Part shown: positions 1,943 through 47,481 of the stretch, piece after piece
Numbering within the stretch: the stretch's first letter is position 1
Layout of the letters: the number at the start of each line of letters is the position of its first letter
Source: a virus
DNA length: 57,742 nt
IMG/VR virus record: IMGVR_UViG_3300042484_002226
Location: 1 to 57,742 of that record
Direction: 5' to 3' (one strand)
The notes under the pieces: generated by a model
Told to the model about the DNA's origin: nothing
Databases searched by the model: none
What the model saw: the letters and a program-made list of their open reading frames with translations, nothing else
Program-made: the position numbers and the translations under genes

Positions 1943-2941
1943 ATGGCATCTCTAGCTGATATCCGCGCACGTCTTCAATCCGCTGAACAAAACAAAGGCG
2001 GTCAATCCCAAGGAGGCGGTGACAACGCAATTTACGCACACTGGAACATGGATGAGGGACAATCGGCAAACGTTCGATTCCTCGCTGATGGTAATCCCAA
2101 GAACACATTCTTCTGGGTTGAACGTGCAATGATCAAACTGCCCTTTAACGGCGTCAAAGGTGAAACGGACAATAAGCAGGTTATGGTCCAAGTCCCTTGC
2201 GTTGAAATGTATGGTGACTCGTGTCCAATTCTGGCCGAAGTCCGTACTTGGTTCAAGGACAAGAGTCTCGAGGACATGGGTCGTAAGTATTGGAAGAAGC
2301 GTAGTTACTTGTTCCAGGGCTTTGTTCGTGAAAATCCCATCTTTGATGACAAGACTCCCGAGAATCCGATTCGCCGTTTCATTATCGGACCACAAATCTT
2401 TACTGGTATCAAATCCGCACTGATGGATCCTGAACTGGAAGAATTGCCCACTGACACTATGCGCGGTCTGGACTACCGCATTGCCAAGACTGGCAAGGGC
2501 GGCTATGCTGACTACAGCACTAGCAAGTGGGCACGTAAAGAGTCTGCACTTACGCAAGCAGAGATGGACGCAATCGAGAAGCATGGCTTGTTCGACCTGT
2601 CTGAGTTCTTGCCCAAGAAGCCCAGTGATGTTGATCTCAAGGTCATGAAGGAAATGTTCGAAGCAAGCGTCGATGGTAAGCCATACGATCTTGCTCGTTG
2701 GGGACAGTACTTCCGTCCAGCTGGCATGAATGCTCCTCAAGGTTCTGCACAACCGGCTGCTGCAACTGAGTCCGCAGCACCGGCAAGCCGACCTGCCCCT
2801 GCAGCTGATCCTTCTCCCTGGGAAGATGATGTAGCTGCGGCTGAACAGTCGTTCTCTGCGCCTGTCTCTAAGCCTGCGCCAGCAGCAGGTGGGCAAAGTG
2901 CTCAAGACATTCTTGCAATGATCCGAGCACGGCAAAAATAA
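1943..2941 (+). CDS. gp32: Single-stranded DNA-binding protein, gp32-like
   Basis: Coats ssDNA during phage replication and recombination, together with UvsX, UvsY and the gp41 helicase. The core (about 28-230) carries the gp32 OB-fold signature: 'ANVRFLADG', the Cys-containing stretch 'VPCVEMYGDSCPIL' (C86, C94; two candidate zinc ligands) and 'YLFQGFVRENP'. Residues 235-332 form an Ala/Pro-rich linker with a short acidic patch (SPWEDD), in place of the strongly acidic T4 tail. The length of 332 aa is near T4 gp32 (301). The ATG is preceded by AAAGGA. Oddity: the N-terminus (ADIRARLQ) and C-terminus (AMIRARQK) end in similar short basic helices. Confidence 0.88.
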   Translation: MASLADIRARLQSAEQNKGGQSQGGGDNAIYAHWNMDEGQSANVRFLADGNPKNTFFWVERAMIKLPFNGVKGETDNKQVMVQVPCVEMYGDSCPILAEVRTWFKDKSLEDMGRKYWKKRSYLFQGFVRENPIFDDKTPENPIRRFIIGPQIFTGIKSALMDPELEELPTDTMRGLDYRIAKTGKGGYADYSTSKWARKESALTQAEMDAIEKHGLFDLSEFLPKKPSDVDLKVMKEMFEASVDGKPYDLARWGQYFRPAGMNAPQGSAQPAAATESAAPASRPAPAADPSPWEDDVAAAEQSFSAPVSKPAPAAGGQSAQDILAMIRARQK

Positions 2942-4535: not shown

Positions 4536-5597
4536 ATGGGAAAACCGTTTGACGTAAGCAAGTTCCGCAAGGAAATCACCAAAAGTATCGATGGCTTGAG
4601 CATCGGTTTCAATGATCCCACTGATTGGATCTCAACTGGCAACTACGCCCTAAACTATCTAATCTCTGGAGACTTTAACAGAGGCGTCCCATTGGGCAAG
4701 GTTACTGTGTTTGCAGGCGAGTCTGGTGCAGGAAAAAGTTACATCTGCAGCGGCAACATTATTAAGAACGCACAGGAACAGGGCATCTATGTGGTGCTGA
4801 TTGATAGTGAAAATGCGCTAGATGAAAAGTGGCTGCATGATCTCGGAGTTGACACTAGCGACAGCAAATTGCTCAAGCTGTCAATGGCCATGATTGATGA
4901 CGTTGCTAAGACCATTAGCACCTTCATGGGCGATTACAAGGCATTGCCCGACGGCGAGCGCCCCAAGGTTCTGTTTGTGATTGATAGCCTGGGCATGTTG
5001 TTGACCCCAACTGATGTGAACCAGTTCGACGCAGGCGACATGAAGGGCGACATGGGCCGCAAGCCTAAAGCACTTACAAGTCTTGTCCGTAACTGTGTCA
5101 ACATGTTTGGCAGCTACAATGTAGGGCTGGTGTGCACTAACCACACTTATGCCAGTCAAGACATGTTTGACCCCGACGACAAAATCAGCGGCGGTCAAGG
5201 TTTCGTGTACGCAAGCAGCATTGTGGTTGCTATGAAAAAGCTCAAGCTCAAAGAGGACGAGGATGGCAACAAGATCACTGACGTCATGGGCATTCGAGCT
5301 GCTTGCAAGGTAATGAAAACTCGTTATGCCAAGCCGTTTGAAGGTGTGCAGGTCAAGATCCCGTACGAGTCGGGGATGAGTCCTTACTCGGGTCTTACTG
5401 ACTTGATTGAAAAGAAAAACATGCTCAAGAAAGAGGGCAATAGCTTGGTGTTTACCACAGGCGATGGCGAAATCATCAAGAAGTTCCGCAAGGCCTGGGA
5501 AGCAAACACAGACGGATGCCTGGACAAGGTCATGGCTGATTTTGAAAATCAGATTAAAAAGGTAAGTACACCAGAAATAGAATCTGAAGAGGAATAA
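4536..5597 (+). CDS. uvsX: UvsX, RecA-like recombinase
   Basis: Strand-exchange recombinase that forms filaments on ssDNA, displacing gp32 with the help of UvsY, and drives recombination-dependent replication. Walker A is GESGAGKS at residues 61-68; the Walker B-like strand is 'KVLFVIDSLGML' (about 144-155). The DNA-binding L2 region follows near 'NHTYASQDMF'. The C-terminus is acidic (ESEEE), as in RecA/UvsX. The length of 353 aa is slightly shorter than T4 UvsX (391). The leader has AAGGAAATAAAC before the ATG. A TTGTTA...TAAACA sequence upstream is too weak to call a promoter. Confidence 0.93.
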   Translation: MGKPFDVSKFRKEITKSIDGLSIGFNDPTDWISTGNYALNYLISGDFNRGVPLGKVTVFAGESGAGKSYICSGNIIKNAQEQGIYVVLIDSENALDEKWLHDLGVDTSDSKLLKLSMAMIDDVAKTISTFMGDYKALPDGERPKVLFVIDSLGMLLTPTDVNQFDAGDMKGDMGRKPKALTSLVRNCVNMFGSYNVGLVCTNHTYASQDMFDPDDKISGGQGFVYASSIVVAMKKLKLKEDEDGNKITDVMGIRAACKVMKTRYAKPFEGVQVKIPYESGMSPYSGLTDLIEKKNMLKKEGNSLVFTTGDGEIIKKFRKAWEANTDGCLDKVMADFENQIKKVSTPEIESEEE

Positions 5598-16470: not shown

Positions 16471-17160
16471 TTATGACTTAAACAAATATCGTTTATGCAG
16501 GTGCAGTCGTGCTTGATTATACTGAACAGCAGTAACAACCAAGGCAAATGCCCACGGCATAACAACTGCTGCCCAAGGTACTAGTCCTGCCCACCATGTG
16601 GCCATTAATGGTTCTTTCATCAACATCAACATAGCAACAGCAAACAACACAAACGATCCTGTAAACACTGTGTCGGGCCAGCGTTGAAGAATCTTGCTGA
16701 CCATGGTAGCACCGAACAAAATGATAGGCACACTGATTAACAAGCCAGCAATCACCAACACAAAATTTCCATCAGCGGCTGCAGCAATGCCTAGTGCATT
16801 GTCAATGCCCATGACAGCATCAGCAACTATAATGGTAGACAGGGCGCCCCAAAAAGTGTCCCGGGCGTTTACATTGTGTTCGCCTGCATCAAATACTAAC
16901 TTCCAACCAATCCAGACCAGTGCTGCTGCACCGATGGCTCGGAGTCCCGGAATCAGTAACAAGTAAGTCAATGCCGCAACTGAAACAAAGCGTATGGCAA
17001 TGGCACCAAAGGTACCCCAGAAGATCGCCTTCTTGCGTAGGTGTTCTGGTAATTTGTTAGCCGCCATTCCGATAACAAGAGCGTTATCGCCGGCTAATAC
17101 AATGTCTATCAAGATGATAGCTAAAAATGCCCAAAGGGCTTGGATCGTAAAGAGTTCCAT
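16471..17160 (-). CDS. terC: TerC-family integral membrane protein
   Basis: A 229-aa protein with about seven hydrophobic segments. Signature acidic residues lie inside membrane helices: 'IIDIVLAGDNALVIGMAA'-type block near residues 15-32 (LIDIVLAGDNA) and 'VADAVMGIDNALGIAAAA' near 110-127. These two repeated xGDNA/GIDNA blocks define the TerC/Alx family, linked to manganese efflux and tellurium resistance and, in some bacteria, to metal loading of secreted proteins. It has its own TATAAATA late promoter and an AAGGA site before the ATG, so it is expressed late. A phage copy is unusual. Confidence 0.88.
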   Translation of the reverse strand: MELFTIQALWAFLAIILIDIVLAGDNALVIGMAANKLPEHLRKKAIFWGTFGAIAIRFVSVAALTYLLLIPGLRAIGAAALVWIGWKLVFDAGEHNVNARDTFWGALSTIIVADAVMGIDNALGIAAAADGNFVLVIAGLLISVPIILFGATMVSKILQRWPDTVFTGSFVLFAVAMLMLMKEPLMATWWAGLVPWAAVVMPWAFALVVTAVQYNQARLHLHKRYLFKS

Positions 17161-24455: not shown

Positions 24456-25706
24456 ATGATTGTTAAACACATTGTCTGTATTGATCGTAAAAGAAATCCG
24501 TTTTTACCATTGACGCAAGCGCACCATCTACTAGATCAATACACAGCCGCAGACAATGTTGTTATACTTTTAGATCATCTTTGGGAAGATCGGTTAGTGC
24601 CTGCTTTAATAAAAACTTTTGTTGCTGTCATTAAGGAAAGATGTCCTTGGAAAATATTGCTGATAGCAAATTCATGGGAAAGACCTAATGCAGGATTTAT
24701 ACAAGAAACAGGAGTCGACGATGTGTTGTATGTTGACTTTTTTTTGTATCGCGTGTTTAAAGAAATTGTAGTGAATAAAAAAAGTGCATTTAGGCAAATA
24801 GAAAATTCACTGACATTCGATAAACAAAAATTTTTATTTTTAACTGGGAAAGCAGCTAAAGTTAATCGCATAGGACTACTGAAAAAATTTGTAGATGCTG
24901 GATTAATGACTCATGCAGAGTGGTCTTTTTATTATTTTGAATTAACTAAAAAATACAATCAGTCGGTTAAAAATCAACTACCAGAATTAACTGATGAAGA
25001 ATTTGAAGAATTTGTAAAAACATGGTTGCGTAACCCAGACAACATTGACATTGCTCTATCTTCCGATGGATTAAGTTACGAATACAATGGCATTCCATAT
25101 GATATTGGTCTGTATATGCAGACTGACTTTTCAGTAATAAGTGAAACCAGTTTTTGCCAAACTAACAACCCGTGGATAACTGAAAAAATATGGATCCCAA
25201 TACTTAACAGGCATCCATTTATCATAGCAGGGGACACAAACATCTTACAAAAATTAGAACAAATGGGATTTGAAACTTTTAGAAATTTCTTAAAAATACC
25301 CAACTATGATCAAATTGTAGATACTGCTGATCGATTGGCAGCAGTTGTAGAGAATACTCGATATTTTTTAGACAACATAAAGAAAAATTCTGCATGGATA
25401 AATCAAGATGTAAACTGTAATTTCTCAAGACTCTCTACACTATATTTTTTGAATAACGAACGCATTTTAAATTTTATGTATACTCATAAGTTGACAGAAT
25501 TTACAATTGATGATATAGTTCCCACAGTTGGGCGGAAGAACAATATAAACAAACAAGAAAAAGATCGTGCCTTTGTTATATTTTACAATAATGTCAAAGA
25601 TTCTACCTGGCCGGACGCAAAATCAATTGATGAGTTTTATAAACTGCCAAAACATATACAACACGAATGCATTAACACTTTTGGTCTTATGCTACCTACA
25701 AAATGA
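24456..25706 (+). CDS. GT10/exostosin-like glycosyltransferase with C-terminal WP/LP/IQxEC module
   Basis: A 416-aa AT-rich gene. The middle region 'FSVISETSFCQTNNPWITEKIWIPILNRHPFIIAGDTNILQKLEQMGFETF' follows the fucosyltransferase/exostosin pattern (E-T-x-F, TEK, PF-x-x-AG, L-x-x-MGFETF); the same block occurs at 48905. The last 45 residues ('VKDSTWPDAKSIDEFYKLP' then KHIQHECINTFG) match the modules at 3569 and 29847. It has its own promoter and no ribosome binding site, and overlaps uvsW by 4 bases. Low GC relative to neighbours suggests acquisition. Confidence 0.6.
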   Translation: MIVKHIVCIDRKRNPFLPLTQAHHLLDQYTAADNVVILLDHLWEDRLVPALIKTFVAVIKERCPWKILLIANSWERPNAGFIQETGVDDVLYVDFFLYRVFKEIVVNKKSAFRQIENSLTFDKQKFLFLTGKAAKVNRIGLLKKFVDAGLMTHAEWSFYYFELTKKYNQSVKNQLPELTDEEFEEFVKTWLRNPDNIDIALSSDGLSYEYNGIPYDIGLYMQTDFSVISETSFCQTNNPWITEKIWIPILNRHPFIIAGDTNILQKLEQMGFETFRNFLKIPNYDQIVDTADRLAAVVENTRYFLDNIKKNSAWINQDVNCNFSRLSTLYFLNNERILNFMYTHKLTEFTIDDIVPTVGRKNNINKQEKDRAFVIFYNNVKDSTWPDAKSIDEFYKLPKHIQHECINTFGLMLPTK

Positions 25707-27160
25707 AAAACGCCAAGATAATAATTCAAGACGAAGTAAATATCAAGATTGATGGACTAGACTTGGATGCCCGCAAAGCTCTAGTTAAAAAATTCAAATA
25801 TGATGTTCCGTATGCACGATATCTACCAGCGGTGAGACTGGGTCGATGGGACGGCAAAGTTAGTTATTTCCAACTCGGCGGTAGCACTTATACTAATTTA
25901 CTACCCGAGATTCTCCCCATACTCGACGACTACAATTATGAAATTGAACTTGACGATCGTCGCGAGTACACTAGAACTTTTGAGTTTGCACTAGCCACAG
26001 AAGATACCTTTAAGGATCGGTGTTGGCCCAAAGGGCACCCACAGGCTGGAGTGCCGATTCAGCTGCGAGATTATCAAGTTGAGATCATCAACAACTTTCT
26101 TAGCAACCCACAGTGCATCCAAGAGGTTGCTACCGGCGCCGGTAAGACTATCATGACTGCTGCGCTAAGTTGCCTGGTTGGACCCTACGGTCGCAGCATT
26201 GTTATTGTGCCCAACAAGAGCTTGGTGACACAGACCGAGAAGGATTATATCAATATTGGATTAGATGTTGGTGTATACTTTGGGGATCGAAAGGAGTTTG
26301 GTCGTCAGCACACTATCTGCACTTGGCAAAGCCTTAATGTTCTATTGAAAAACACCCGATCGGGCACCGCCGACTGTACCATACAAGACTTTATTGAAGG
26401 CGTGGTGTGTGTCATGGTAGACGAAGTGCATATGGCCAAAGCCGATGCACTCAAGACTTTGCTCACAGGGGTAATGAGTCAAATCCCGATTCGGTGGGGA
26501 CTTACAGGCACTGTTCCTAAGGAAGCATTTGAATTTCAGGCCTTGCATGTAAGCCTAGGACCTGTAGTGAGCCGTCTTGCAGCTAGCGAGTTACAGGAGC
26601 GTGGTGTACTAGCACAATGTCATGTAAACGTGGTACAGTTAGTAGATCATGTAGAGTTTAAAGAATATCAAGCCGAGCTTAAATACTTACTAGAGGAACC
26701 AGGTAGACTTGATACAATTGCTGCCTTAGTTGCTCGGGTAAATGAGACTGGCAACACCTTGGTACTTGTAGACCGGGTGGCTGCCGGGAAAGCACTAGTT
26801 GAAAGGTTAGGAGAGAGTGCAGTATTTGTATCAGGTGCAACCAAGGCAAAAGATCGTCAGGATGAATACGACGAAGTAGCCGACGCAACCGGTAAGATCA
26901 TTGTAGCCACATACGGAGTTGCTGCTGTGGGTATTAATATTCCGCGTATTTTCAATCTAGTTATGTTAGAACCTGGCAAAAGTTTTGTTCGAGTTATACA
27001 GAGCATAGGCCGTGGTATACGTAAGGCAGAGGATAAGGATCATGTTCAAATCTGGGACATAACATCCACTTGCAAATTTGCCAAACGACATTTGACCAAA
27101 CGCAAAGTATTTTATAAAGAAGCCAATTATCCGTATACTCAGGAAAAACTAGAATGGTGA
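25703..27160 (+). CDS. uvsW: UvsW, ATP-dependent DNA/RNA helicase
   Basis: Superfamily 2 helicase that unwinds R-loops and branched DNA and helps T4-type phages switch from origin- to recombination-dependent replication. Walker A is ATGAGKT (143-149), the DExH box is DEVH (240-243), motif III 'LTGTVP', and motif VI 'QSIGRGIRK' lies near the C-terminus. The N-terminal about 110 residues, with 'VRLGRWDGKVSYFQ', match the UvsW DNA-binding domain. The length of 485 aa is close to T4 (503). Starts at an ATGA overlap. Confidence 0.93.
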   Translation: MKNAKIIIQDEVNIKIDGLDLDARKALVKKFKYDVPYARYLPAVRLGRWDGKVSYFQLGGSTYTNLLPEILPILDDYNYEIELDDRREYTRTFEFALATEDTFKDRCWPKGHPQAGVPIQLRDYQVEIINNFLSNPQCIQEVATGAGKTIMTAALSCLVGPYGRSIVIVPNKSLVTQTEKDYINIGLDVGVYFGDRKEFGRQHTICTWQSLNVLLKNTRSGTADCTIQDFIEGVVCVMVDEVHMAKADALKTLLTGVMSQIPIRWGLTGTVPKEAFEFQALHVSLGPVVSRLAASELQERGVLAQCHVNVVQLVDHVEFKEYQAELKYLLEEPGRLDTIAALVARVNETGNTLVLVDRVAAGKALVERLGESAVFVSGATKAKDRQDEYDEVADATGKIIVATYGVAAVGINIPRIFNLVMLEPGKSFVRVIQSIGRGIRKAEDKDHVQIWDITSTCKFAKRHLTKRKVFYKEANYPYTQEKLEW

Positions 27161-28736: not shown

Positions 28737-29175
28737 ACTTAGCATTCAAAATGAGATGAATTGTTTCGATCTCAAGGATCGAGAGTTTTATAACAGTCTC
28801 ACAGATGAGGAACGTAAAAAGTTCTCCAACTATCTTATGATACGGTGGGGATCGGCGGTGCATGGTAGTCGAGAACTGCAAGAGTTTTATCTAATCTCAT
28901 GCAACGAGCGCCTCAACAAACACTTCTTTGCTATAAACCGTCACCCTAAGTTACAGTGGTTGTGCGCTACATCTGTAAGTCCGGGCATGGGTACACACCG
29001 GCATCAGTGGATCTCGCCCAAGAAGAAGGAAGCAGGATCCAACGAGATCAAGAAAACTCTCATGGAGCTTATGCCTAATGCCAAGCTGTCGGACATTGAC
29101 ACACTGTCTAAACTCATCAACAAGAAAGATTTGAAAGAGTATTTGCGTGAACACGGCTACACTGACAAAGACTGA
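28729..29175 (+). CDS. Possible clamp-loader small subunit (gp62-like)
   Basis: I chose the GTG at 28729, which overlaps the previous stop. The 148-aa product has 'DREFYNSLTDEERKKFSNYLMIRW' (a pattern like the N-terminus of T4-like gp62 proteins), 'NRHPKLQWLCATSV' and a terminal helix with 'IDTLSKLINKKDLKEYLREHG'. gp62 partners gp44 to load the gp45 clamp; gp44 and gp45 are not in this window. The identification rests on pattern only. It ends in a 29-base overlap with the next gene. Confidence 0.4.
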   Translation: MDKLSIQNEMNCFDLKDREFYNSLTDEERKKFSNYLMIRWGSAVHGSRELQEFYLISCNERLNKHFFAINRHPKLQWLCATSVSPGMGTHRHQWISPKKKEAGSNEIKKTLMELMPNAKLSDIDTLSKLINKKDLKEYLREHGYTDKD

Positions 29176-29845
29176 ATACACTTGCAACCATTGTGCCCGT
29201 GCATTCAAGCGGGAACCAAGCTTGGCCACACATGTGTGTGAATCCAAACGTCGTTATCTTGAGCGGGACGAAGTAGGTGTTACGATTGCTCTCCAAGCAT
29301 ACTTGAGATTTTACGAGATTACCCAAGGCACAGCAAAGAACAAAAGGTTCAAGGATTTTTCTGCCAGCCCCTACTACAGGGCATTTGTTAAATTTGGACG
29401 TTACTGTCAAGAGATCCGAGCAGTCAATGTGCCCCAGTTTGTGAACTGGGTGGTTAAGAAAAATAAAAAGATTGATCACTGGTGTCACGAATCTGTATAC
29501 TATGAATACTTGATGGAGTACTTGCGCACTGAATCTGTAGGTGATGCCTTGACCCGATCAATTGAATCTAGTATCGACTGGCAGGAAAAAACCGGCAATG
29601 CAGCACACGACTATCTTCGATATGGCAACGCCAACACACTGTGCTATGCGATTTCGACCGGGCGGGTATCAGCCTGGACTGTATACAACTGTGATTCTGG
29701 ACATGAGTTGTTAGCAAGACTTAACTCCGAGCAGTTGACTATGATTTGGCCCATGGTTGAGACTGGTGTTTGGAGTCAACGACTTCGTGACCACCCCGAA
29801 GATCGTGACTATGCACGGACAATTTTAAAACAAGCAGGCTGGTAG
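29147..29845 (+). CDS. Conserved phage protein with N-terminal zinc-finger-like motif
   Basis: Start at the GTG 29147 (MNTATLTKTEYTC), inside the end of the preceding gene. Residues 12-31, 'CNHC' then 'LATHVC', look like a C2H2/C2HC zinc finger, followed by 'ESKRRYLERDEVGV' and a long helical domain (about 40-232) with many aromatic residues. Nucleic-acid or protein binding is likely. I recall relatives in T4-like marine phages beside the putative clamp-loader gene, but no named function. Confidence 0.6.
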   Translation: MNTATLTKTEYTCNHCARAFKREPSLATHVCESKRRYLERDEVGVTIALQAYLRFYEITQGTAKNKRFKDFSASPYYRAFVKFGRYCQEIRAVNVPQFVNWVVKKNKKIDHWCHESVYYEYLMEYLRTESVGDALTRSIESSIDWQEKTGNAAHDYLRYGNANTLCYAISTGRVSAWTVYNCDSGHELLARLNSEQLTMIWPMVETGVWSQRLRDHPEDRDYARTILKQAGW

Positions 29846-29846
29846 C

Positions 29847-30827
29847 ATGGTATGTATAGACTTTCAAGGCGGCAGCCACGGTAACTATTTAGAGTTTATT
29901 TGTAACAAATTTCTAGCATGTGTACCTACCGCAGGGCCGACCCCATTTAATCACCTTGGGGCGTCACACCAACAAAATTATCTCGGCTCCCGGATATTTC
30001 AAGGCGGTCACTATTCATTTTGGCCAGAAATTACCCACGTACTTGAGAAGAATCAAGTAGTATCTATACAGATTGATATAGATGATCTTCTCCCGTTAAC
30101 ATCAGTAAGTTTGCTGCGCGCCGGAAATTATAACTATGCCAATAACGAACTAGAGTTGGATACCTATAATAAATTGAATAATCGAGATTATAAGTGGGTA
30201 CTTGACAATATTGTTACTAACTTTTTTAGCAATCAAATTCAAGGTAGTTACAATGCAGTAAAGGACGACACATGGCCTTGCGTAAATAACCTACATGAGT
30301 TTAATCAATTGCCAATTTGGATCCAAGATGAATGTTATAACATTCATGGATTAGTCTTGTTGCAGCTTGATAAAGAGCACCCAGATTGTCCAAGACATGT
30401 ACTCCGAGAATTTTTTAAACTAGGGTTTAAATATCCACTCCAATCGGGTTTTATTCAGCAACAGAAAAAAATGGTGTACTCCGAGTCGATCTCAGTATAC
30501 TCGATGCCATTTTCTGCATTTTATAATATTGAAACATTTGTAACACATTTGCACGCCATTGCTAGTATGGCTGGTTACACAGTGCATAATCTACCCGACT
30601 TGTTAGTAGTGCACCAACAGTTCCTAGATTTACAAATTTACAAAACATCTAAACTCCGGTGTGACCAACTGATTAGTGATATTCAGTTAGGGCAATCTTT
30701 TGCATTGCCTAAATTAACACTATTAGAAGAAAGTTATGTTAGTGCACAGCTTGAACTATGCTATAATAAAGAATTAACCCACTGGTTTAATAATAGCCAG
30801 GACATATTGGATTATTTGACCACATGA
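29847..30827 (+). CDS. Glycine-rich-loop protein with an internal WP/LP/IQxEC module
   Basis: A 326-aa protein that begins 'MVCIDFQGGSHGNYLEFICNKF' with the same strand-Gly-loop-helix as 27154 and 35763. Unlike the other two proteins with the module, this one carries it internally (about 135-168): 'YNAVKDDTWPCVNNLHEFNQLP' split by W, then IWIQDECYNIHG. The C-terminal half is helical. It starts 1 base after the previous stop and overlaps the DnaE-like gene by ATGA. Sulfotransferase-like is the nearest guess. Confidence 0.5.
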   Translation: MVCIDFQGGSHGNYLEFICNKFLACVPTAGPTPFNHLGASHQQNYLGSRIFQGGHYSFWPEITHVLEKNQVVSIQIDIDDLLPLTSVSLLRAGNYNYANNELELDTYNKLNNRDYKWVLDNIVTNFFSNQIQGSYNAVKDDTWPCVNNLHEFNQLPIWIQDECYNIHGLVLLQLDKEHPDCPRHVLREFFKLGFKYPLQSGFIQQQKKMVYSESISVYSMPFSAFYNIETFVTHLHAIASMAGYTVHNLPDLLVVHQQFLDLQIYKTSKLRCDQLISDIQLGQSFALPKLTLLEESYVSAQLELCYNKELTHWFNNSQDILDYLTT

Positions 30828-31387
30828 GCGCAGACATTGATATTGACTTTGCAGATCGATCACTGGTATTAAAGTTGATTGACCATATCCCGGCTATGCA
30901 ACGGGTAGACAGCACAGTCCGTAAGCATAACTCGGGAGTATACGTCACCGATATTCCCGTAGATCCTGTGCATGGATGTGCTGCGATTGATTACGCTATA
31001 GCCGATCAGCGCGGATATTTCAAGATTGACTTCTTGAACATGAGTGTGTATCAACTGATTCAAAGTCCCGACCACTATGCAACTATGTTAGCAGCGGCTC
31101 CGCCTTGGGATCGAATTTGGAATGACATAGCTTGGGCTAAACAGTTGGTGCACGTGGGAAATTATGCAGAGTTGTTGGCATCAATGCGACCAGATTCTAT
31201 ACCCAAGATGGCTGCGTTCATTTCGATTATCCGTCCAGGCAAAGCACACCTGCAAAACTGTTCCTGGGTAGAAGTGTTCGAATCAGTCTGGAATGGGGAT
31301 GATAGTCGGGGTTACACCTTTAAAAAGGCACATGCACTTTCGTATGCAATGCTAGTGACACTACACATGAACTTGCTTACTACTTAA
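30824..31387 (+). CDS. Miniature DnaE-like (Pol III alpha) protein, 187 aa
   Basis: Motifs of C-family replicative polymerases appear in the right order but compressed. 'ADIDIDFADR' (3-12) matches PDxDIDF, with the two palm metal-binding aspartates (D4, D6); 'HNSGVYV' (35-41) matches HAAGV; 'GYFKIDFLNMSVYQLI' (64-79) matches GLxKFDFLGLxxLxxI, with the third catalytic Asp (D69); 'MRPDSIPKMAAFISIIRPGK' (121-140) matches the LKPxxFEDLIALxALYRPGP block; and 'FKKAHALSYAML' (166-177) matches FNKSHAxxYAL. DnaE itself exceeds 1100 aa. No PHP, fingers or clamp-binding regions are present. Activity unknown. Confidence 0.7.
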   Translation: MSADIDIDFADRSLVLKLIDHIPAMQRVDSTVRKHNSGVYVTDIPVDPVHGCAAIDYAIADQRGYFKIDFLNMSVYQLIQSPDHYATMLAAAPPWDRIWNDIAWAKQLVHVGNYAELLASMRPDSIPKMAAFISIIRPGKAHLQNCSWVEVFESVWNGDDSRGYTFKKAHALSYAMLVTLHMNLLTT

Positions 31388-32153
31388 AGTAGTCAGATTT
31401 GTTCCAGGTCTCTCCCCAGACAACAAGAGAATCGGGACTTGTTGCTAACGGTAACTGACAGTCCCAAAAATTATGATATCTTTCAGAGACTTCCGGGAGA
31501 CCCAGTATGTTACAAAGATATCTACTACCTCCGGGTTGAAATAATAGATTATAGTCTGCTTTCTTATGCGGAATTGGTAGAGCAAGAGGCGGCATACCGC
31601 CGTAGAGTCGATTTATTCCTCTGAGTAAATATTCTTTAACTAGTGAAATGCGATCGGAGTTTGTCACTCCACTGTTATCACTATCTGGTGTTGTGCTATA
31701 TTTAATAATACGTCCATCGACTTGCCATGTTCTCCTCCAAAGATTAAATGCCTCCCGAGTTCTGAGTTGCGATAGATATGTTTTAACTGTGCACTCCCAG
31801 TGAATATGACTAAAGCACACAGCGGATGTATCTATTATTAAAAGTTCAGCTTGCTCTGAATTAACTGCGCCCAGGATATTTTCTGGCATGTTTACATGTA
31901 ACGCACCAGCATACCAAAAATCTGCTGCGGGATTCAGAGTGAAATGCTCTTCAAATAAATCTGAAAATCGATCAAATTTTTTGTGATCGAGCATTTTACT
32001 GTGCCGCATGAATCCATAACTTTGCCCTGTTAATGGGTCGATATGCCATTCATTATCGAGAAATTGCGGCAAGGTTCCTAACCATCCAGCCACAAAGTCT
32101 ATTCTGGCACCACCTTCGCCGGCTACTAAAATAACTTTTTTAATTTCTACCAT
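31380..32153 (-). CDS. Glycine-rich-loop paralog, leftward copy 2
   Basis: A 257-aa protein, paralog of the upstream 32147 gene: both start 'EIKKVILVAG.GGAR.DFVAGWL' and share 'IDPLTGQSYG', 'NPAADF.YAG.LH', and a C-terminal 'YNLLFQPGGS.YLC', ending 'SPDSLVVWGETWNK'. The N-terminal strand-loop resembles the sulfotransferase/P-loop entry. Its start overlaps the stop of the paralog (ATGA-type). Its 3' end overlaps the 3' end of the DnaE-like gene by 8 bases, with no terminator seen. Confidence 0.6.
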   Translation of the reverse strand: MVEIKKVILVAGEGGARIDFVAGWLGTLPQFLDNEWHIDPLTGQSYGFMRHSKMLDHKKFDRFSDLFEEHFTLNPAADFWYAGALHVNMPENILGAVNSEQAELLIIDTSAVCFSHIHWECTVKTYLSQLRTREAFNLWRRTWQVDGRIIKYSTTPDSDNSGVTNSDRISLVKEYLLRGINRLYGGMPPLALPIPHKKADYNLLFQPGGSRYLCNILGLPEVSERYHNFWDCQLPLATSPDSLVVWGETWNKSDYFK

Positions 32154-32905
32154 GAGTTGATCTGTTCATTGAAGTAATCCGCTTTGTTCCAAGTTCGCCC
32201 CCATACGACGAGCGAAGTGGGGCTTACAGTTAGTGGTAGATAACAGTCCCATGCTGCATGATATCTGCTATCGATCGCTGGCAGATTTAGTTGTTTACAC
32301 AGATACTTGCTACCACCTGGTTGAAACAATAGATTATAGGCTACCGTTTTATGTGGCAGTTGAATAGCTCCCGGCCGTACAAGCGGCTGATTCTTTAGAC
32401 TCTGCAACTGCTGCTCGACTAATGTAATACGATCCTGATTTGTTATTTCAGATTTCTTAATGTTCCTGTCAATCTGCTGCCAAGTCATGTTTGTTTCGAT
32501 TGCGCCTCGAGTTCTGAATTGTGGGAAATATGTTTTAACTACAAACTCCCATGCCAAGTGATCGGTACTAACACTTGATGTATCGATAGACACTAGTTCT
32601 GCTAGGCCAGATTCAATAGCGCCTTGGATATTTTCTGGTTTATGACCGTGCAAGGTACCGGCATAATATAAATCTGCTGCAGGATTTATAATGAAAAACT
32701 CTTTAAAGAAATCGGAGAAACTGTCAATTTTTACGTAATCGAGCATTTTAGTGAACATCATGGATCCGTGACTTAGCCCAGTTTGTGGATCTATGCGCCA
32801 AGTAGTGTCAAGGAACAACGGCAGAGTACTTAGCCATCCGGCAACAAAGTCCATTCTAGCTCCGCCTGCACCGGCTACTAAAATAACTTTTTTAATTTCT
32901 AACAT
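32147..32905 (-). CDS. Glycine-rich-loop paralog, leftward copy 1
   Basis: I chose the ATG at 32905 (MLEIKKVILVAGAGG), which overlaps the upstream stop as TAATG. It is 252 aa and clearly related to 31380-32153, including the terminal block 'YNLLFQPGGSKYLCKQLNLP' and 'SPTSLVVWGRTWNKADYF'. This looks like a tandem duplication in which both copies were kept intact. Function unknown. Confidence 0.6.
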   Translation of the reverse strand: MLEIKKVILVAGAGGARMDFVAGWLSTLPLFLDTTWRIDPQTGLSHGSMMFTKMLDYVKIDSFSDFFKEFFIINPAADLYYAGTLHGHKPENIQGAIESGLAELVSIDTSSVSTDHLAWEFVVKTYFPQFRTRGAIETNMTWQQIDRNIKKSEITNQDRITLVEQQLQSLKNQPLVRPGAIQLPHKTVAYNLLFQPGGSKYLCKQLNLPAIDSRYHAAWDCYLPLTVSPTSLVVWGRTWNKADYFNEQINSW

Positions 32906-33282
32906 TAGTTGATTCGTCTGACCAGGGTTATACTCTTGCGTTTGGACTTTTTGCGTCCGAGGTCGTTTAAGCTGCATACAGGGCCGTGGATGATCTCAAG
33001 ATCTCGGTTACTGAATGTGCGTAGATAAGGACGGAACAGGTCCCACTCGTGCTTGAGGAAGATATTGATGGGGATACTGCGGTTGCTTTCCCACCACCAA
33101 GTGTTGGCCAACTCAATGAATACTCGCTTAAGAGCAGCATCTAGTATGTTACCAAAGTCGTAAATGGTGGTGATGGCGTCGTCACGATTTTGAATGATAC
33201 CGACATACTCCACGCCGGCGTATGAACACAGGGTGATAAAAGGGTACTTAGAAGTTAGAGTTTGGAATATGTTTTCACCCAT
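32905..33282 (-). CDS. Conserved T4-like phage protein of unknown function, 125 aa
   Basis: Start ATG at 33282 (MGENIFQTLTSKYPFITLC); a TTG at 33291 would add only three residues. The protein has an alpha/beta look with 'YVGIIQNRDDAIT.IYD', 'WWWESNRSIPINIFLK.EW' and a basic tail 'GRKKSKRKSITLVRRI'. I recall very similar proteins in T4-like marine phages, always unannotated. It is the first gene of a three-gene leftward operon. The Arg/Lys tail might bind nucleic acid. Confidence 0.65.
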   Translation of the reverse strand: MGENIFQTLTSKYPFITLCSYAGVEYVGIIQNRDDAITTIYDFGNILDAALKRVFIELANTWWWESNRSIPINIFLKHEWDLFRPYLRTFSNRDLEIIHGPVCSLNDLGRKKSKRKSITLVRRIN

Positions 33283-34112: not shown

Positions 34113-34802
34113 ATGAGTAAGATTAAAAAACTGGTTGTATTTGGGGATAGTTGGACCTTTGGTGACGAATTAATGGCACCGGGGTTGGCGAGTCGCCTAG
34201 ATTCGTATAATGCGATGCCCGAGAATGATCAATATCGACTACAGCATTGTTGGGCACGTCATGTAGCTGACCACTTTGGGTTAGAGCTAGTTAACTTGGC
34301 CTTTAATGGCATGAGCTTGCAGAGCATGATTTGGACGGCGTTATGGTGGATTAACAATCACGATGTGTCTGACAGTGTAGCAATAGCGGCACTTACGCTA
34401 GATCATAGGACCAGTTGGTACCAAGACAATGTACCTGGTCGAACCCCCGAATGGAACATGCACACGCACTCGGCGTGGGAACAAACATTTGGGCCCTGGA
34501 GGGAAGTAAAACAAAATTATTTCCAACATAGCCAAGGAGATATGCTGGATCAATATCAACGACAGCAAGCGGTGTTATGTTTTGATAGCATTGCTGATCG
34601 CCACCAGATCCCAGTAGTCCAATTTGATATACACCCCGATCAAACTCCTTACTACGGTAAACAACATGCTTATGTTGGCGAAGCTGCTTGGAACTGGATC
34701 GAAGATAATCGGGCCAAGGACAAACACCCTAACGAACAAGGACATGTTTTGATTGCCAACAGGTTGATTTCTTGGATAGAATCTGTTAAACTTATGAAGT
34801 GA
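34113..34802 (+). CDS. SGNH-hydrolase-like protein
   Basis: The ATG at 34113 follows an in-frame TTG that I rejected. Block I is 'KLVVFGDSWTFGDEL' (Ser near residue 13), and block V is 'NRAKDKHPNEQGHVLIANRL' near the end (Asp and His three apart, DKxHP). The central 'LVNLAFNGMSLQSMIW' provides the Gly/Asn of blocks II-III, so all catalytic elements seem present, unlike the other two SGNH-like proteins in the window. Overlaps the primase start (GTGA). Could modify glycan or lipid on the host surface. Confidence 0.7.
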   Translation: MSKIKKLVVFGDSWTFGDELMAPGLASRLDSYNAMPENDQYRLQHCWARHVADHFGLELVNLAFNGMSLQSMIWTALWWINNHDVSDSVAIAALTLDHRTSWYQDNVPGRTPEWNMHTHSAWEQTFGPWREVKQNYFQHSQGDMLDQYQRQQAVLCFDSIADRHQIPVVQFDIHPDQTPYYGKQHAYVGEAAWNWIEDNRAKDKHPNEQGHVLIANRLISWIESVKLMK

Positions 34803-35782
34803 TAGATCTACTTGCTTATTTGCCAGCGCGCCGAAAACAAACCTCTTCGGGCTGGCTCAGTTTCAACTCGCCCTGTTGTGTACACAACGGGCAGTCGGCC
34901 GATCGTAGGCAGCGAGGCGGGATCAAAGCAACCCCAGATGGCTGGAGCTTTCATTGCTTTAATTGCCGATTTACTGCTAGTTGGCAATTGGGCCGAAATC
35001 TAAGCATCAAAGCTCGTAAGTTTTTGGGATGGGTAGGGGTGTCGGAACATGATATTGAAATGCTTAATATCGAAAGCTTACGACATCGAAGTATACATGG
35101 AATCATCCAGGATCGACAGCGAACGGCCGAACTGCTGTTAGGTGTCGAGTTTAAAGAACGCGACTTACCGCCAGCTGCTGAACTAATTGCACCTGAGCAT
35201 AGTGAGTTTTGGCAGTATGCTCGTAAGCGATGCGTACCTGAAGACTTTCCCTTGATGACACAGATACGCAATGATGGCGTCCACTGGACTAGGCCACACG
35301 TGATTGTGCCATTTACCTATGACAACAAGATTGTAGGTTCTGCCTGCAGGTTCATAGATAACAAGCAACCAAAGTTCATAAACGATACCCAACCAGGTTA
35401 CGTATTTGGCACAGACTTACAGCACGATGACTGGCAACATGTACTGGTCATGGAAGGCGTGTTTGATGCAATCTGTATTGGGGGGGTCGCGGTATTGCAC
35501 AACGATATTAACGATGCACAGGCCAGGCTGATACGAAACCTAGGGAAAGAAATCACAGTAGTCCCTGATCATGACAGTGCAGGTATGGCCCTAGTTGATC
35601 GTGCAGTGGAACTAGGGTGGGCTGTGAGCATGCCCGATTGGCCCCCGGAGATCAAAGACGTCAACGATGCAGTGGTCACATTTGGCCGTTTGGCTACACT
35701 GCTAACCATAATGCAAGCTAGGGAAACTAGTCGAATCAAAATAGAACTAAGGAAGAAACAACTTGTTAAACACCTACGTTAA
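34799..35782 (+). CDS. gp61: DNA primase, gp61-like, with Toprim domain
   Basis: The GTG at 34799 overlaps the previous stop. The 327-aa protein has an N-terminal zinc-ribbon region (C26/C27, H29, C53, C56), a linker helix, and a Toprim domain with 'VMEGVFDAICI' (E219) and 'VPDHDSAGMALVDRA' (D257, D259), the metal-binding acids. Synthesises RNA primers for the lagging strand with the gp41 helicase, whose gene lies 2 kb downstream. T4 gp61 is 342 aa. It lacks a helicase domain. Confidence 0.85.
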   Translation: MIDLLAYLPARRKQTSSGWLSFNSPCCVHNGQSADRRQRGGIKATPDGWSFHCFNCRFTASWQLGRNLSIKARKFLGWVGVSEHDIEMLNIESLRHRSIHGIIQDRQRTAELLLGVEFKERDLPPAAELIAPEHSEFWQYARKRCVPEDFPLMTQIRNDGVHWTRPHVIVPFTYDNKIVGSACRFIDNKQPKFINDTQPGYVFGTDLQHDDWQHVLVMEGVFDAICIGGVAVLHNDINDAQARLIRNLGKEITVVPDHDSAGMALVDRAVELGWAVSMPDWPPEIKDVNDAVVTFGRLATLLTIMQARETSRIKIELRKKQLVKHLR

Positions 35783-37639: not shown

Positions 37640-39067
37640 ATGATTAAAGAATACGGAATCGACGTTCAGAAGTTATTTTTGGAGATGATGTTAGAGGATG
37701 CATCTAGCTATGTTCGCGTCCAAAATATCTACAATCCCGAGAACTTTGATAAGAGTCTACGCCCTGCGGCTGTGTTCATCAAGGAGCACAGCGATAAACA
37801 CAAGACCATGCCGGATCGACTGCAGATCTCTGCCACAACGGGTATCAAGCTACAAGCTGTGCCGGACTTGAATGAGGGACACTTTGAATGGTTCATGGAA
37901 GAGTTCGAGTCCTTTACACGTCGACAAGAACTTGAACGGGCAATTTTAAAAGCAGCAGACTTGTTGGAAAAGGGCGATTACGATCCGGTTGAGAAACTGA
38001 TCAAGGACGCAGTGCAAATCAGCTTGACCAAAGACTTAGGCACAGATTACTTTGCAGACCCGGCTGCACGGATCAACAAGTACTTTAACAGCGGAGGCCA
38101 GGTCAGTACAGGTTGGCCACAGCTGGATAGATTGCTGTACGGTGGGTTTAGCCGCGGAGAATTGAACATCTTTGCAGGTGGATCAGGGTCGGGCAAGAGC
38201 TTGGTCATGATGAACATTGCACTAAGCTGGGTGCAGGCCGGCCTTAGTGGAGTGTATGTCACACTGGAACTAAGTGAAGAGTTGACCAGCTTGCGTACAG
38301 ATGCCATGCTGACCAGCATGAGTACCAAGGACATTCGCAAGGATATTGGTACAACTGAGCTCAGAGTCAAGATGATAGGCAAAAAATCTGGCAACTATCA
38401 AGTCAAAGGACTTCCGGCACAAAGCAACATCAATGACATTCGTAGTTTCTTGAAAGAGTATCAAATCCAAACTAACAAGCGTGTGGACTTTGTCATGATT
38501 GATTACCTGGACTTGCTGATGCCAGTCAGTGCCAAAGTTAGTCCCAATGACTTGTTTGTCAAGGACAAGTACGTGAGTGAAGAACTGCGTAACTTGGCCA
38601 AGGAACTAGGTGTACTGATGGTAACTGCAAGTCAGTTGAATCGTAGTGCTGTGGAAGAGAATGAGTTTGATCACAGTCATATTAGTGGGGGCATTAGTAA
38701 GATCAACACAGCAGACAACGTGTTTGGTATCTTCACCAGCCGCAGCATGCGCGAGCGCGGCAAGTATCAGATCCAGTGCATGAAGTCGCGCAGTTCAACC
38801 GGAGTAGGACAAAAGATCGATCTTGAGTACAACATTGAAACCATGCGTATCACTGATGAGGGCGGGGATAGTGCCAGTGACCGCCCAACCAGTTCAATTA
38901 TGGATGCGATCAAGACCCGTAGTCAAGCACAGGCGGCCGACAAGCTTGAGAGTAGCGATACTGTAAAGTTTGAACGTGCACCCAGGACCGACGACGTACC
39001 AAAGATCTCGGCTGAAATTCAATCAACCAAGCTCAAGCAATTACTAGGGCAGATTAAGAAATCTTAA
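37640..39067 (+). CDS. gp41: Replicative DNA helicase, gp41/DnaB-like
   Basis: Hexameric 5'-3' helicase of the phage replisome, working with the gp61-like primase. The N-terminal 130 residues form the helical dimerisation domain. Walker A is GGSGSGKS (180-187); 'GVYVTLELSEELTSLR' and 'VDFVMIDYLDLLMP' follow as H1a and Walker B/H2; 'VMVTASQLNRS' and 'HISGGISKINTADNVFGIF' are H3-H4. The length of 475 aa equals the T4 protein. The C-terminal 60 residues are low-complexity and polar. Confidence 0.92.
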   Translation: MIKEYGIDVQKLFLEMMLEDASSYVRVQNIYNPENFDKSLRPAAVFIKEHSDKHKTMPDRLQISATTGIKLQAVPDLNEGHFEWFMEEFESFTRRQELERAILKAADLLEKGDYDPVEKLIKDAVQISLTKDLGTDYFADPAARINKYFNSGGQVSTGWPQLDRLLYGGFSRGELNIFAGGSGSGKSLVMMNIALSWVQAGLSGVYVTLELSEELTSLRTDAMLTSMSTKDIRKDIGTTELRVKMIGKKSGNYQVKGLPAQSNINDIRSFLKEYQIQTNKRVDFVMIDYLDLLMPVSAKVSPNDLFVKDKYVSEELRNLAKELGVLMVTASQLNRSAVEENEFDHSHISGGISKINTADNVFGIFTSRSMRERGKYQIQCMKSRSSTGVGQKIDLEYNIETMRITDEGGDSASDRPTSSIMDAIKTRSQAQAADKLESSDTVKFERAPRTDDVPKISAEIQSTKLKQLLGQIKKS

Positions 39068-44681: not shown

Positions 44682-45581
44682 ATGACACGACTTTTACTTA
44701 GTAGGCTCGAATTCTACATCACCAACGTATGCAACTTGACCTGCAGCGGATGTAATCGGTACAACAATTATAACTTCAAAGGCGCACAGAACTGGAATGA
44801 TTATAGCGAGAATCTAGCCAAATGGGCAGAGAAAATTGAAATCAATCATCCGGTAATTTTAGGTGGCGAACCCTTGCTTAATGCAACTATTAATCAATGG
44901 GTTGTAGGACTTCGTAAGCTATGGCCTAGACTAGGTGCAGTACAGATACAAAGCAATGGTACACGTATTGATCAAGTGGCCGGGCTGTACGATGCACTTG
45001 ATAACGGTAATAATGGCTGGATTGGAGTCAGTGCACATAGTCCAGATGATCTTGAAGAACTATCTCGACGGATCAGACGATTCCTTCGAGGTACTATAAC
45101 TGAAACCGCTGATCCTAACCATATCACTGGGTCTAAATATCAATTTGCCGACAGTAACGGTACAAAAGTCAATATATGGATGAATGACCACTTTGTACAG
45201 AGCAATATCATTGAGCAGCCTAATGGAAGATTTGGATTATACAATAGTGATCCCGATGCAGCTCATGCCAACTGCACATTTGTTAAATTTAAAAATTATC
45301 ATTGGATACGTGGAAAAATTTATAAGTGCGGCCCTGCTGCGTTGATGCCTGAATTTGATCGACAACACAATTTTGATATCAGTGACGAGGATCGAATTTT
45401 GTTAAATAGCTATGATGCATTAAGTGTTGATGAGTTCGATCAGCGAGGCGAAGAATTTTTTCGAACAATTGACAATGTCATCCCCCAGTGCAAATTTTGT
45501 CCAGAGCAGTTTACATACGATCCCATAAAATTTTCCGATCGAAAGAAAGATTGGAAACTAGTAGTTAACAAGGAACAGTAA
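44682..45581 (+). CDS. Radical SAM protein 1
   Basis: A 299-aa radical SAM enzyme: CNLTCSGC (C17, C21, C24) binds the 4Fe-4S cluster, 'ILGGEPLLNATIN' is the GGE motif that holds SAM, and 'IQSNGTRI' is a core strand. A C-terminal cysteine set (the 'KCGPAAL' region and 'CKFCPEQ' near residue 270) resembles a SPASM/twitch auxiliary-cluster site. The reaction is unknown. It opens the Fe-S block that includes iscU and an A-type carrier. Confidence 0.85.
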   Translation: MTRLLLSRLEFYITNVCNLTCSGCNRYNNYNFKGAQNWNDYSENLAKWAEKIEINHPVILGGEPLLNATINQWVVGLRKLWPRLGAVQIQSNGTRIDQVAGLYDALDNGNNGWIGVSAHSPDDLEELSRRIRRFLRGTITETADPNHITGSKYQFADSNGTKVNIWMNDHFVQSNIIEQPNGRFGLYNSDPDAAHANCTFVKFKNYHWIRGKIYKCGPAALMPEFDRQHNFDISDEDRILLNSYDALSVDEFDQRGEEFFRTIDNVIPQCKFCPEQFTYDPIKFSDRKKDWKLVVNKEQ

Positions 45582-45582
45582 C

Positions 45583-45939
45583 ATGAAACAAGGTAAAGTG
45601 TGGGGACAAACAGAATTGCTAGAAGCCAACGGTGTTTTAGAATTTCATCGCATTGAAGCCAAAGCCGGCGGAGTGTGTAGCAAGCACAAACATAAATTTA
45701 AATGGAATGGATTCTTTGTTGAATCTGGAAAAATGATAATTCGTGTTTGGAAAAACAATTACGATTTAGTCGATGAAACTATTTTAGAAGCAGGTCAATA
45801 TACCAAAGTTGCACCGGGAGAATATCATCAATTTGAAGCTGTCACAGACTGTGTTGCATTTGAATTGTATTGGGCAGAATTTGATCACGATGATATCGCA
45901 AGAGAAACTGTGGGGTTCAATAAACATGGGACAACTTAA
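45583..45939 (+). CDS. Cupin-fold protein, 118 aa
   Basis: A compact beta-barrel: 'GVCSKHKHKFKWNGFFVESGKMIIRVW' carries the first cupin motif (His-x-His, with Lys/Trp), and 'TKVAPGEYHQFEAVTDCVAFELYW' the second (Pro-Gly, His). The metal ligands appear conserved, so it may be a metal-dependent isomerase or a sugar-binding regulator. It sits 1 base after radical SAM 1 and might act on the same substrate. Confidence 0.75.
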   Translation: MKQGKVWGQTELLEANGVLEFHRIEAKAGGVCSKHKHKFKWNGFFVESGKMIIRVWKNNYDLVDETILEAGQYTKVAPGEYHQFEAVTDCVAFELYWAEFDHDDIARETVGFNKHGTT

Positions 45940-45999
45940 TAGTGTATTTTTATTGGTCTGCGCACTCCCTACAGCAGATTCATCGGAGGGTCAGATATC

Positions 46000-46050
46000 A
46001 TGACAGAAATTTACGAGCCTGGCGAATTACAACAATTATTAAAGGATTAA
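46000..46050 (+). CDS. Possible 16-aa leader peptide before iscU
   Basis: ATG-to-TAA frame 'MTEIYEPGELQQLLKD', preceded by GGAGGG at spacing 9 and ending one base before the iscU ATG. A 25-codon frame from 45926 ends at 46003 and overlaps it by ATGA. These could be a translational coupling device or a remnant; no evidence of expression. Confidence 0.2.
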   Translation: MTEIYEPGELQQLLKD

Positions 46051-46051
46051 C

Positions 46052-46459
46052 ATGGCATATTCATCCCAAGTGATTGATCACTACGAAAATCCACGTAACG
46101 TGGGTAGCTTTGCCAAGGACGACGAGGATGTCGGCACCGGCATGGTCGGAGCCCCGGCTTGTGGCGATGTGATGAAATTACAAATCAAAGTCAACCCCGT
46201 AACAGGACTAATCGAAGATGCGAAATTTAAAACGTATGGCTGCGGGTCGGCGATTGCAAGCAGTTCTCTTGTTACAGAATGGATCAAGGGTAAAACGCTT
46301 GCCGAGGCAGGTAGCATTAAGAATACACAGATTGCAGAAGAACTCGCACTCCCTCCGGTTAAAATACATTGTAGCATTTTGGCCGAGGATGCCATTAAAG
46401 CGGCAGTAGCAGATTACCGTAAACGACATGACCAGACGGTTACATCTACTAGCTCATGA
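46052..46459 (+). CDS. iscU: IscU-like Fe-S cluster scaffold
   Basis: A 135-aa protein with the IscU hallmarks in order: 'GAPACGDVMKLQIKV' (C37, D39), 'FKTYGCGSAIASSSL' (C64), and 'LPPVKIHCSILAEDAIKAA' (LPPVK 100-104, C107). The three cysteines and Asp hold the nascent 2Fe-2S cluster; LPPVK is the site bound by the host HscA chaperone, so the phage protein is built to use the host ISC pathway. No iscS, hscA or hscB is nearby. Overlaps the next gene by 4 bases (ATGA). Confidence 0.93.
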   Translation: MAYSSQVIDHYENPRNVGSFAKDDEDVGTGMVGAPACGDVMKLQIKVNPVTGLIEDAKFKTYGCGSAIASSSLVTEWIKGKTLAEAGSIKNTQIAEELALPPVKIHCSILAEDAIKAAVADYRKRHDQTVTSTSS

Positions 46460-47481
46460 CACCATCAGACATTCAGATTCTTCAATTTGAACCTACTAGT
46501 TTTTGCAATGCCAGTTGCCCGCACTGCGGAAGATTTGATGAAGAAGGTAATCTACATCCCGATCTTACATTATCACATTTAGATACCGATCAAATTATAA
46601 AAAATTTACAATTGTTAACATTGACATCCTTGTCTTATGTAATATTTGAAGGAGACAAAGGTGATCCGGTTATGCATCCAGGGATCGAAAAGTTTGTCAA
46701 ATGCTTTTATGATTTGCCATCTCGCCCCATCATTGAGTTAACAACAAATGGCAGCATTCGAGATACTAAGTGGTGGAAAAAATTAGGACAAACTTATCCA
46801 AATTTAAAAGTAATTTTTAGTCTTGATGGATTAGCCGACACCAATCATCTGTATAGGGTAGGTGTAAATTATAGTAAAGCTATGAATAACGCTATTGCTT
46901 TCATTGAAGGCGGCGGGCATGCTATCTGGAAATGTTTGATATTTAAACACAACGAACATCAACTCGATGAGATTAAATCATTGTCGAAAACTTTAGGATT
47001 TGCTGAATTACGTTATGGGCCAGGGGATCGAAATAGATTTAACGGAGTAAGTAAGTGGCCAGTTAGAGTAAACGGGACAGTAAATCACTATATAGAACCT
47101 GCTTCCCCGGGTATTGAAGAAATGTGTCATATTCACTACAAAGAATATGCTTTTTCCAAATCTGATAGTCAACCAGGCAACAAGATTTGTCCTAATTTAA
47201 GCGTCGGGCGAATATATATTAACCACCAAGGCTATGTAGTTCCTTGCTGTATGATGCATTTTGATACCGAACTAAATTATTTTGGGAAGGATCATATGGT
47301 ACAGTTAACTGAAGGGTTAGACAACCAATCACTGCTAATTAACACCCTGTCGACTGTGTTAAATAATAAATTCTTTAATAATAATTTAGTCGATTCCCTA
47401 CTAGGGCCCGAAGAACAATGGCATTTTAATTGTCAAAGATCTTGTAAACAACTTATTATTAAGAATAAAAATAAACTATGA
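46456..47481 (+). CDS. Radical SAM/SPASM protein 2
   Basis: A 341-aa protein: CNASCPHC (C17, C21, C24), 'VIFEGDKGDPVMHPG' in the place of GGEP, 'IELTTNGSI' and 'VIFSLDGLAD' core strands, then a SPASM-like C-terminus with 'CPNLSVGRIYINHQGYVVPCCMMHFD'. SPASM proteins often modify peptides or sugars. It lies between iscU and the A-type carrier with ATGA overlaps at both ends, so the three are made together. AT-rich compared with iscU. Confidence 0.85.
   Translation: MTPSDIQILQFEPTSFCNASCPHCGRFDEEGNLHPDLTLSHLDTDQIIKNLQLLTLTSLSYVIFEGDKGDPVMHPGIEKFVKCFYDLPSRPIIELTTNGSIRDTKWWKKLGQTYPNLKVIFSLDGLADTNHLYRVGVNYSKAMNNAIAFIEGGGHAIWKCLIFKHNEHQLDEIKSLSKTLGFAELRYGPGDRNRFNGVSKWPVRVNGTVNHYIEPASPGIEEMCHIHYKEYAFSKSDSQPGNKICPNLSVGRIYINHQGYVVPCCMMHFDTELNYFGKDHMVQLTEGLDNQSLLINTLSTVLNNKFFNNNLVDSLLGPEEQWHFNCQRSCKQLIIKNKNKL

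What the first reader, a model, noticed from the sequence alone, without database searches (positions are those of the whole stretch)
30824..31387. A 187-aa protein that keeps the conserved blocks of DnaE, including all three catalytic aspartates
The order PDxDIDF-like (D4, D6), HAAGV-like (35-41), GLxKFDFLGL-like (D69), KP...RPG-like (121-140) and FNKSHAxxYA-like (166-177) follows bacterial Pol III alpha over its palm and adjoining parts, but at about one sixth of the length, with PHP, fingers, beta-binding and OB regions missing. T4-like phages use a family B polymerase, so this is not an obvious replacement. It could be a minimal polymerase, a primer-extending factor, or a decoy that binds host replication partners. 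It sits in an operon with otherwise unidentified phage proteins.
Basis: partly seen in the sequence, partly recalled or inferred. Interest (0 to 1): 0.88.

Follow-up and report, generated by a model that had tools for sequence, protein, structure and literature searches.

The report
Half of a split phage polymerase
The gene encodes the catalytic half of a stripped-down bacterial-type DNA polymerase that giant phages make as two separate proteins; the kind was described computationally in 2021, but I found no laboratory test of whether it copies DNA.

Summary
The 187-aa ORF at 30824-31387 keeps the DnaE motifs in order. Asp4, Asp6 (and Asp8) and Asp69 are invariant in 64 relatives. Its AlphaFold model (pLDDT 92) matches bacterial Pol III alpha chains above everything else in the PDB.

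It is not a whole mini-polymerase. It is the C-terminal half (phrog_11778) of a Pol III alpha core split across two genes. The other half (phrog_11127, ~175 aa) lies elsewhere in the genome. It carries the GRGS nucleotide-binding motif, aligns to E. coli DnaE 319-393 and stops there; our ORF resumes at D401. All nine phage genomes examined and all eight contigs of 280 kb or more carry both halves plus a family B polymerase. The window is a 57.7-kb fragment, so its own N-half is unseen, but its two closest long relatives have it.

Iyer et al. 2021 (PMC7824862) described exactly this split minimal Pol III alpha in "group 2.2" jumbo phages. This is a new member of a known, apparently untested kind. 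Most likely the two proteins assemble one shared active site and act as an accessory polymerase beside the family B replicase. Assembly, activity and role are inferred.

The parts
30824..31387 (+). Split minimal Pol III alpha, C-terminal (Mg2+/template-binding) half, 187 aa, phrog_11778
30833..30847 (+). D4-I-D6-I-D8: equivalent of DnaE D401-x-D403-x-D405 (first two catalytic aspartates)
   Evidence: invariant in 64 sequences; E. coli numbering
30926..30937 (+). H35-N-S-G38: equivalent of the DnaE KHAGGV block (510-515)
   Evidence: H35 and G38 invariant
31022..31030 (+). K67-I-D69: equivalent of DnaE K553-F-D555 (third catalytic aspartate)
   Evidence: invariant
31232..31243 (+). R137-P138-G-K140: fingers RPG block (DnaE LFRPGP 637-642)
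31322..31333 (+). K167-K-A-H170: fingers FNKSHA block (DnaE 756-761)
29847..30827 (+). Upstream 326-aa ORF overlapping the start of the polymerase half by 4 bases (ATGA); absent at this place in relatives L015, L031 and L072, so probably an insertion
29147..29845 (+). phrog_11058 protein with a weak N-terminal C2H2 zinc-finger match; directly upstream of the polymerase half in relatives
32905..33282 (-). phrog_11637, small convergent gene next to the polymerase half in most relatives; function unknown
25703..27160 (+). UvsW-type helicase, upstream context
34799..35782 (+). DNA primase, downstream context
37640..39067 (+). DnaB-like replicative helicase, downstream context
1943..2941 (+). Single-strand DNA-binding protein (phrog_1192)
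4536..5597 (+). UvsX/RecA recombinase

Best explanation
The ORF is the C-terminal half of a two-gene, minimal C-family (Pol III alpha / DnaE-type) DNA polymerase of a jumbo phage of the RaK2/PA5oct/Atu_ph07/Phosso kind. The partner, half A (phrog_11127), supplies the GRGS dNTP-binding part of the palm. This protein, half B, supplies the three metal-binding aspartates, the conserved Lys and a shortened fingers region. The two most likely assemble into one shared active site and form an accessory DNA polymerase beside the phage's own family B replicase, for example extending primers, filling gaps or repairing. Shown here: homology, intact active-site residues, clean division of the Pol III alpha core between two genes, their co-occurrence in relatives, location in the replication module and purifying selection. 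Inferred: presence of half A in the window's own genome, physical assembly, catalysis, substrate and role.
For: B: phrog_11778 E 3.8e-51. AlphaFold pLDDT 92; 14 of the 15 best Foldseek hits are Pol III alpha chains and the other is titled only 'DNA polymerase with inhibitor', E 1.5e-3 to 0.18; next hit E 1.4. Profile hits to Pol III alpha with collinear motifs. D4, D6, D8, K67, D69 invariant in 64 relatives. A: PF07733 above cut-off for RaK2, Phosso and G001; aligns to E. coli DnaE 319-393 at E 3e-9, ending at FLN393, while B starts at D401; GRGS invariant. Pairing: A and B in all 9 phage genomes examined and 8 of 8 contigs of 280 kb or more; 90 records each in the phage collection with near-identical genus tallies. 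No fused A-B frame (frames 164-218 aa). PolB in all of these. B lies between UvsW and primase-DnaB, A near the clamp-loader gene. dN/dS 0.03. Described by Iyer et al. 2021.
Against: No biochemical or interaction data were found. The window is a fragment without half A or PolB. Thumb, PHP, beta-binding and OB parts are missing, so DNA grip and processivity would be poor unless other proteins help. Foldseek E-values are modest, with query TM 0.34-0.48. The model of A is only moderately confident (pLDDT 83, pTM 0.66) and its Foldseek hits, though mostly Pol III alpha/PolC, have E above 0.3. No complex could be modelled.
Confidence: 0.82

Rival explanations
1. The two halves assemble, but the enzyme is a nucleotidyltransferase with a non-polymerase job, for example adding one or a few nucleotides to a DNA end, RNA or protein, since the thumb and much of the fingers are lost.
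For: About 105 DnaE residues between D405 and H511, including the thumb, are replaced by about 26 residues between D8 and H35, and the fingers are shortened. The catalytic domain has the pol beta nucleotidyltransferase fold (PMC7824862). A family B replicase is already present.
Against: The DNA-polymerase fingers blocks RPG and FNKSHA are invariant or nearly so, and the genes sit in replication modules.
Confidence: 0.1
2. This ORF alone is a complete minimal polymerase or primer extender.
For: It holds all three catalytic aspartates.
Against: It lacks the GRGS part of the palm, which is encoded by a separate gene in all 17 complete or long genomes checked.
Confidence: 0.03
3. A catalytically dead decoy or regulator that mimics DnaE and titrates host replication partners.
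For: A short fragment of a host-type protein in a phage; beta-, tau- and epsilon-binding activities were not tested.
Against: Active-site residues are absolutely conserved and purifying selection is strong. The regions by which DnaE binds beta, tau and epsilon are among those missing (established knowledge). A complementary catalytic half co-occurs.
Confidence: 0.03

Closest known systems
Split minimal DNA polymerase III alpha of group 2.2 jumbo phages (Iyer et al. 2021, PMC7824862; phrog_11778 + phrog_11127)
   Same: Same C-terminal half, same Asp triad and motifs, presence beside a family B polymerase in relatives, distant N-half gene; the window also shares the terminase-SSB-UvsX-UvsW-B-primase-DnaB order with RaK2.
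   Different: The window's own N-half and PolB are not on this 57.7-kb fragment. Window-specific genes sit immediately before and after the polymerase half.
Bacterial DnaE / Pol III alpha (E. coli, Thermus, Mycobacterium)
   Same: Palm aspartates (D401, D403, D555), K553, HAGGV, RPG and FNKSHA blocks in the same order; fold match.
   Different: 187 aa versus 1160; no PHP, thumb, beta-binding or OB parts; GRGS segment in another protein.
Single-chain phage DnaE-like polymerases (phrog_405, e.g. Streptomyces phage Zemlya)
   Same: Same superfamily and motifs.
   Different: One chain holding both halves and a fuller fingers domain.

Membership tests
Split minimal Pol III alpha of jumbo phages | C-terminal half homologous to phrog_11778 over its full length | tested here: met
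   E 3.8e-51, residues 3-186
Split minimal Pol III alpha of jumbo phages | Mg2+-binding Asp triad present in the C-half | tested here: met
   D4, D6, D69, invariant in 64 relatives
Split minimal Pol III alpha of jumbo phages | Separate N-half (GRGS) encoded elsewhere in the same genome | tested here: inconclusive
   Not on this fragment; present in long relatives G001 and G002, and in all 9 phage genomes and 8 of 8 contigs >=280 kb
Split minimal Pol III alpha of jumbo phages | Family B DNA polymerase in the same genome | tested here: inconclusive
   Not on this fragment; present in G001, G002, the 9 phage genomes and all 8 contigs >=280 kb
Split minimal Pol III alpha of jumbo phages | Other Pol III alpha domains absent from the genome | tested here: inconclusive
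   For the fingers model PF17657, 13 records showed only the half-B gene; PHP, OB and beta-binding domains were not searched
Split minimal Pol III alpha of jumbo phages | Two halves assemble into an active polymerase | not testable with these tools
   Needs biochemistry or complex modelling; predicted, not shown, in PMC7824862
Bacterial DnaE / Pol III alpha proper | Single chain with PHP, complete palm, thumb, fingers, beta-binding and OB domains | tested here: not met
   187 aa, no GRGS segment, no Pfam match at all
C-family palm fold | Structural match to the Pol III alpha catalytic core | tested here: met
   Foldseek's best hits are Pol III alpha chains, probability up to 1.00, though E-values are modest (1.5e-3 at best)

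The most novel reading that the evidence does not exclude
The phage runs a two-polymerase replisome in which a split, thumb-less C-family enzyme, active only when its two halves meet, extends primers made by the neighbouring primase before the family B enzyme takes over.
Probability: 0.2. Interest if true: 0.7.

Novelty: new member of a known kind. Interest (0 to 1): 0.42.

Why it matters
If active, an enzyme of about 360 residues in two chains would be the smallest C-family polymerase core known to me and would show which parts of bacterial replicases are dispensable. It would also help explain why many jumbo phages keep a second polymerase of bacterial type beside a T4-like one. The gene pair is small, highly conserved and present in culturable phages (RaK2, PA5oct, 121Q), so the question is directly testable.

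Tried and rejected
Pfam with the single window sequence gave nothing, and phmmer of it against the PDB gave only chance hits; profiles and folds were needed. A search for half A with the Phosso sequence in viral contigs found none; an alignment-based query found 80 loci. I considered that the split polymerase might be the main replicase with a dead PolB; not supported, because PolB motif A is intact in all 11 genomes inspected and motif C (DTDS) in 10; in SCTP-2 motif C was not found in the piece read. Contigs lacking A, B or PolB (G019, G021, G023, G030) are 154-262 kb and are treated as fragments. A weak half-A hit on contig G012 was a separate single-chain mini-DnaE, not a fusion of the two halves. 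Cellular origin: only 11 hits in about 85,000 species genomes, in metagenome bins, probably phage contigs binned with hosts (the last point is inference). The MIJ3 'split DNA polymerase' paper concerns its family B gene with an intein, not this pair.

Full report
Observation. The ORF at 30824-31387 (+) encodes 187 residues. Its ATG overlaps the stop of the upstream ORF (ATGA). PHROG 11778 ('DNA polymerase') matches residues 3-186 at E 3.8e-51, and 90 phage records encode a homologue.

Conservation. In 64 sequences from viral contigs (relatives 35-77% identical to the window protein) D4, D6, D8, H35, G38, K67, D69, P123, R137, P138, K140, H170 and Y174 are invariant. In 12 more diverse sequences including RaK2, Phosso, Atu_ph07, PA5oct, SCTP-2, RAS14, XacN1 and Slicko01 the aspartates and K67 also never vary. 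dN/dS to L015 (96% protein identity) is 0.03 at dS 0.73. These residues correspond to E. coli DnaE D401, D403, D405, the H of KHAGGV, K553 and D555.

Fold. AlphaFold2 with the 64-sequence alignment gives pLDDT 92.1 and pTM 0.83. Of the 15 best Foldseek matches in the PDB, 14 are bacterial Pol III alpha chains and one is titled only 'DNA polymerase with inhibitor' (E 1.5e-3 to 0.18); the next hit is at E 1.4. A profile search of PDB sequences gives Pol III alpha for 9 of 10 hits, with the motif blocks in order in the alignments shown.

The missing half. In RaK2 and Phosso a different gene matches PF07733 positions 19-96 and phrog_405 positions 357-436, while the homologue of our ORF matches from about 580 onwards. 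RaK2 ORF162 (172 aa) ends ...GLGRGSSVSSYCLFLIGLHLVDSLKYDLDVNEFLKY. A profile of 11 such proteins aligns to E. coli DnaE 319-393 at E 3e-9, ending at FLN393. Our ORF resumes at the PDFDVDF motif (400-406). So the Pol III alpha core is cut between FLN393 and D401, and the roughly 105 residues between D405 and H511, including the thumb, are reduced to about 26.

Pairing. Half A and half B occur together in all nine phage genomes examined: Phosso, RaK2, Atu_ph07, SCTP-2, PA5oct, Vibrio 2.275.O (labelled partial), RAS14, Slicko01 and XacN1. They also occur together in 8 of 8 viral contigs of at least 280 kb (G001, G017, G022, G024-G028). In the phage collection each half is found in 90 records with nearly matching genus tallies. 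The genes lie from about 11 kb (Slicko01) to over 200 kb (Phosso) apart and are not fused in any genome examined. Two long relatives of the window, G001 and G002, have A. The window, a 57,742-base fragment, does not.

Other polymerases. A family B polymerase is present in all nine phage genomes and all eight long contigs. Motif A is intact in all 11 genomes inspected and motif C (DTDS) in 10; in SCTP-2 motif C was not found in the piece read. Searching the fingers model PF17657 against 13 records found nothing beyond the half-B gene itself.

Neighbourhood. In the window the order is terminase end (3-377), SSB (1943), UvsX (4536), UvsW (25703), zinc-finger protein (29147), half B (30824), primase (34799), DnaB (37640). 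RaK2 has the same core order. Half A lies close to the clamp-loader gene in RaK2, Atu_ph07, SCTP-2 and XacN1, and next to a GroES-like gene in Phosso, PA5oct and the Vibrio phage. Directly after half B most relatives have a small convergent gene, phrog_11637. In the window two minus-strand paralogues are inserted between them.

Interpretation. Homology, active-site conservation and the clean division of the core between two co-occurring genes make a composite active site the best explanation. The intact PolB argues that the pair is a second, accessory polymerase. Loss of thumb, beta-binding and OB regions implies weak DNA binding without helpers. The location next to primase and helicase fits primer extension or gap filling, but this is inference only.

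Prior knowledge. Iyer et al. 2021 (PMC7824862; [quoted passage not shown] I found no experimental follow-up in the library searched, which lacks most subscription papers. The finding is therefore a new member of a described kind.

Noticed in passing
L072:12860-14659 (minus strand; contig IMGVR_UViG_3300046007_012848): A close relative of the window carries, next to DnaB and on the opposite strand, a single-chain DnaE-like polymerase of about 570-600 aa without a detected PHP domain (PF07733 E 9.8e-41, PF17657 E 2.6e-13), in addition to half B. Its best phage match is an uncultured 484-kb phage at 37% identity.
   Followed up: partly
window 32905-33282 (-): phrog_11637, a small gene convergent with half B in most relatives; function unknown, a candidate partner.
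   Followed up: partly
window 31380-32153 and 32147-32977 (-): Two tandem paralogues without any Pfam match inserted after half B; the 96%-identical relative L015 has one copy, and L031 and L072 have none there.
   Followed up: partly
window 44682-47795 (+): A cluster of two radical-SAM proteins with an IscU/NifU-type scaffold (PF01592 E 1e-52) and an IscA-type Fe-S protein (PF01521 E 1.1e-20), unusual in a phage.
   Followed up: partly
window 16471-17160 (-): TerC-family membrane protein (PF03741 E 2.6e-39) in a phage.
   Followed up: no
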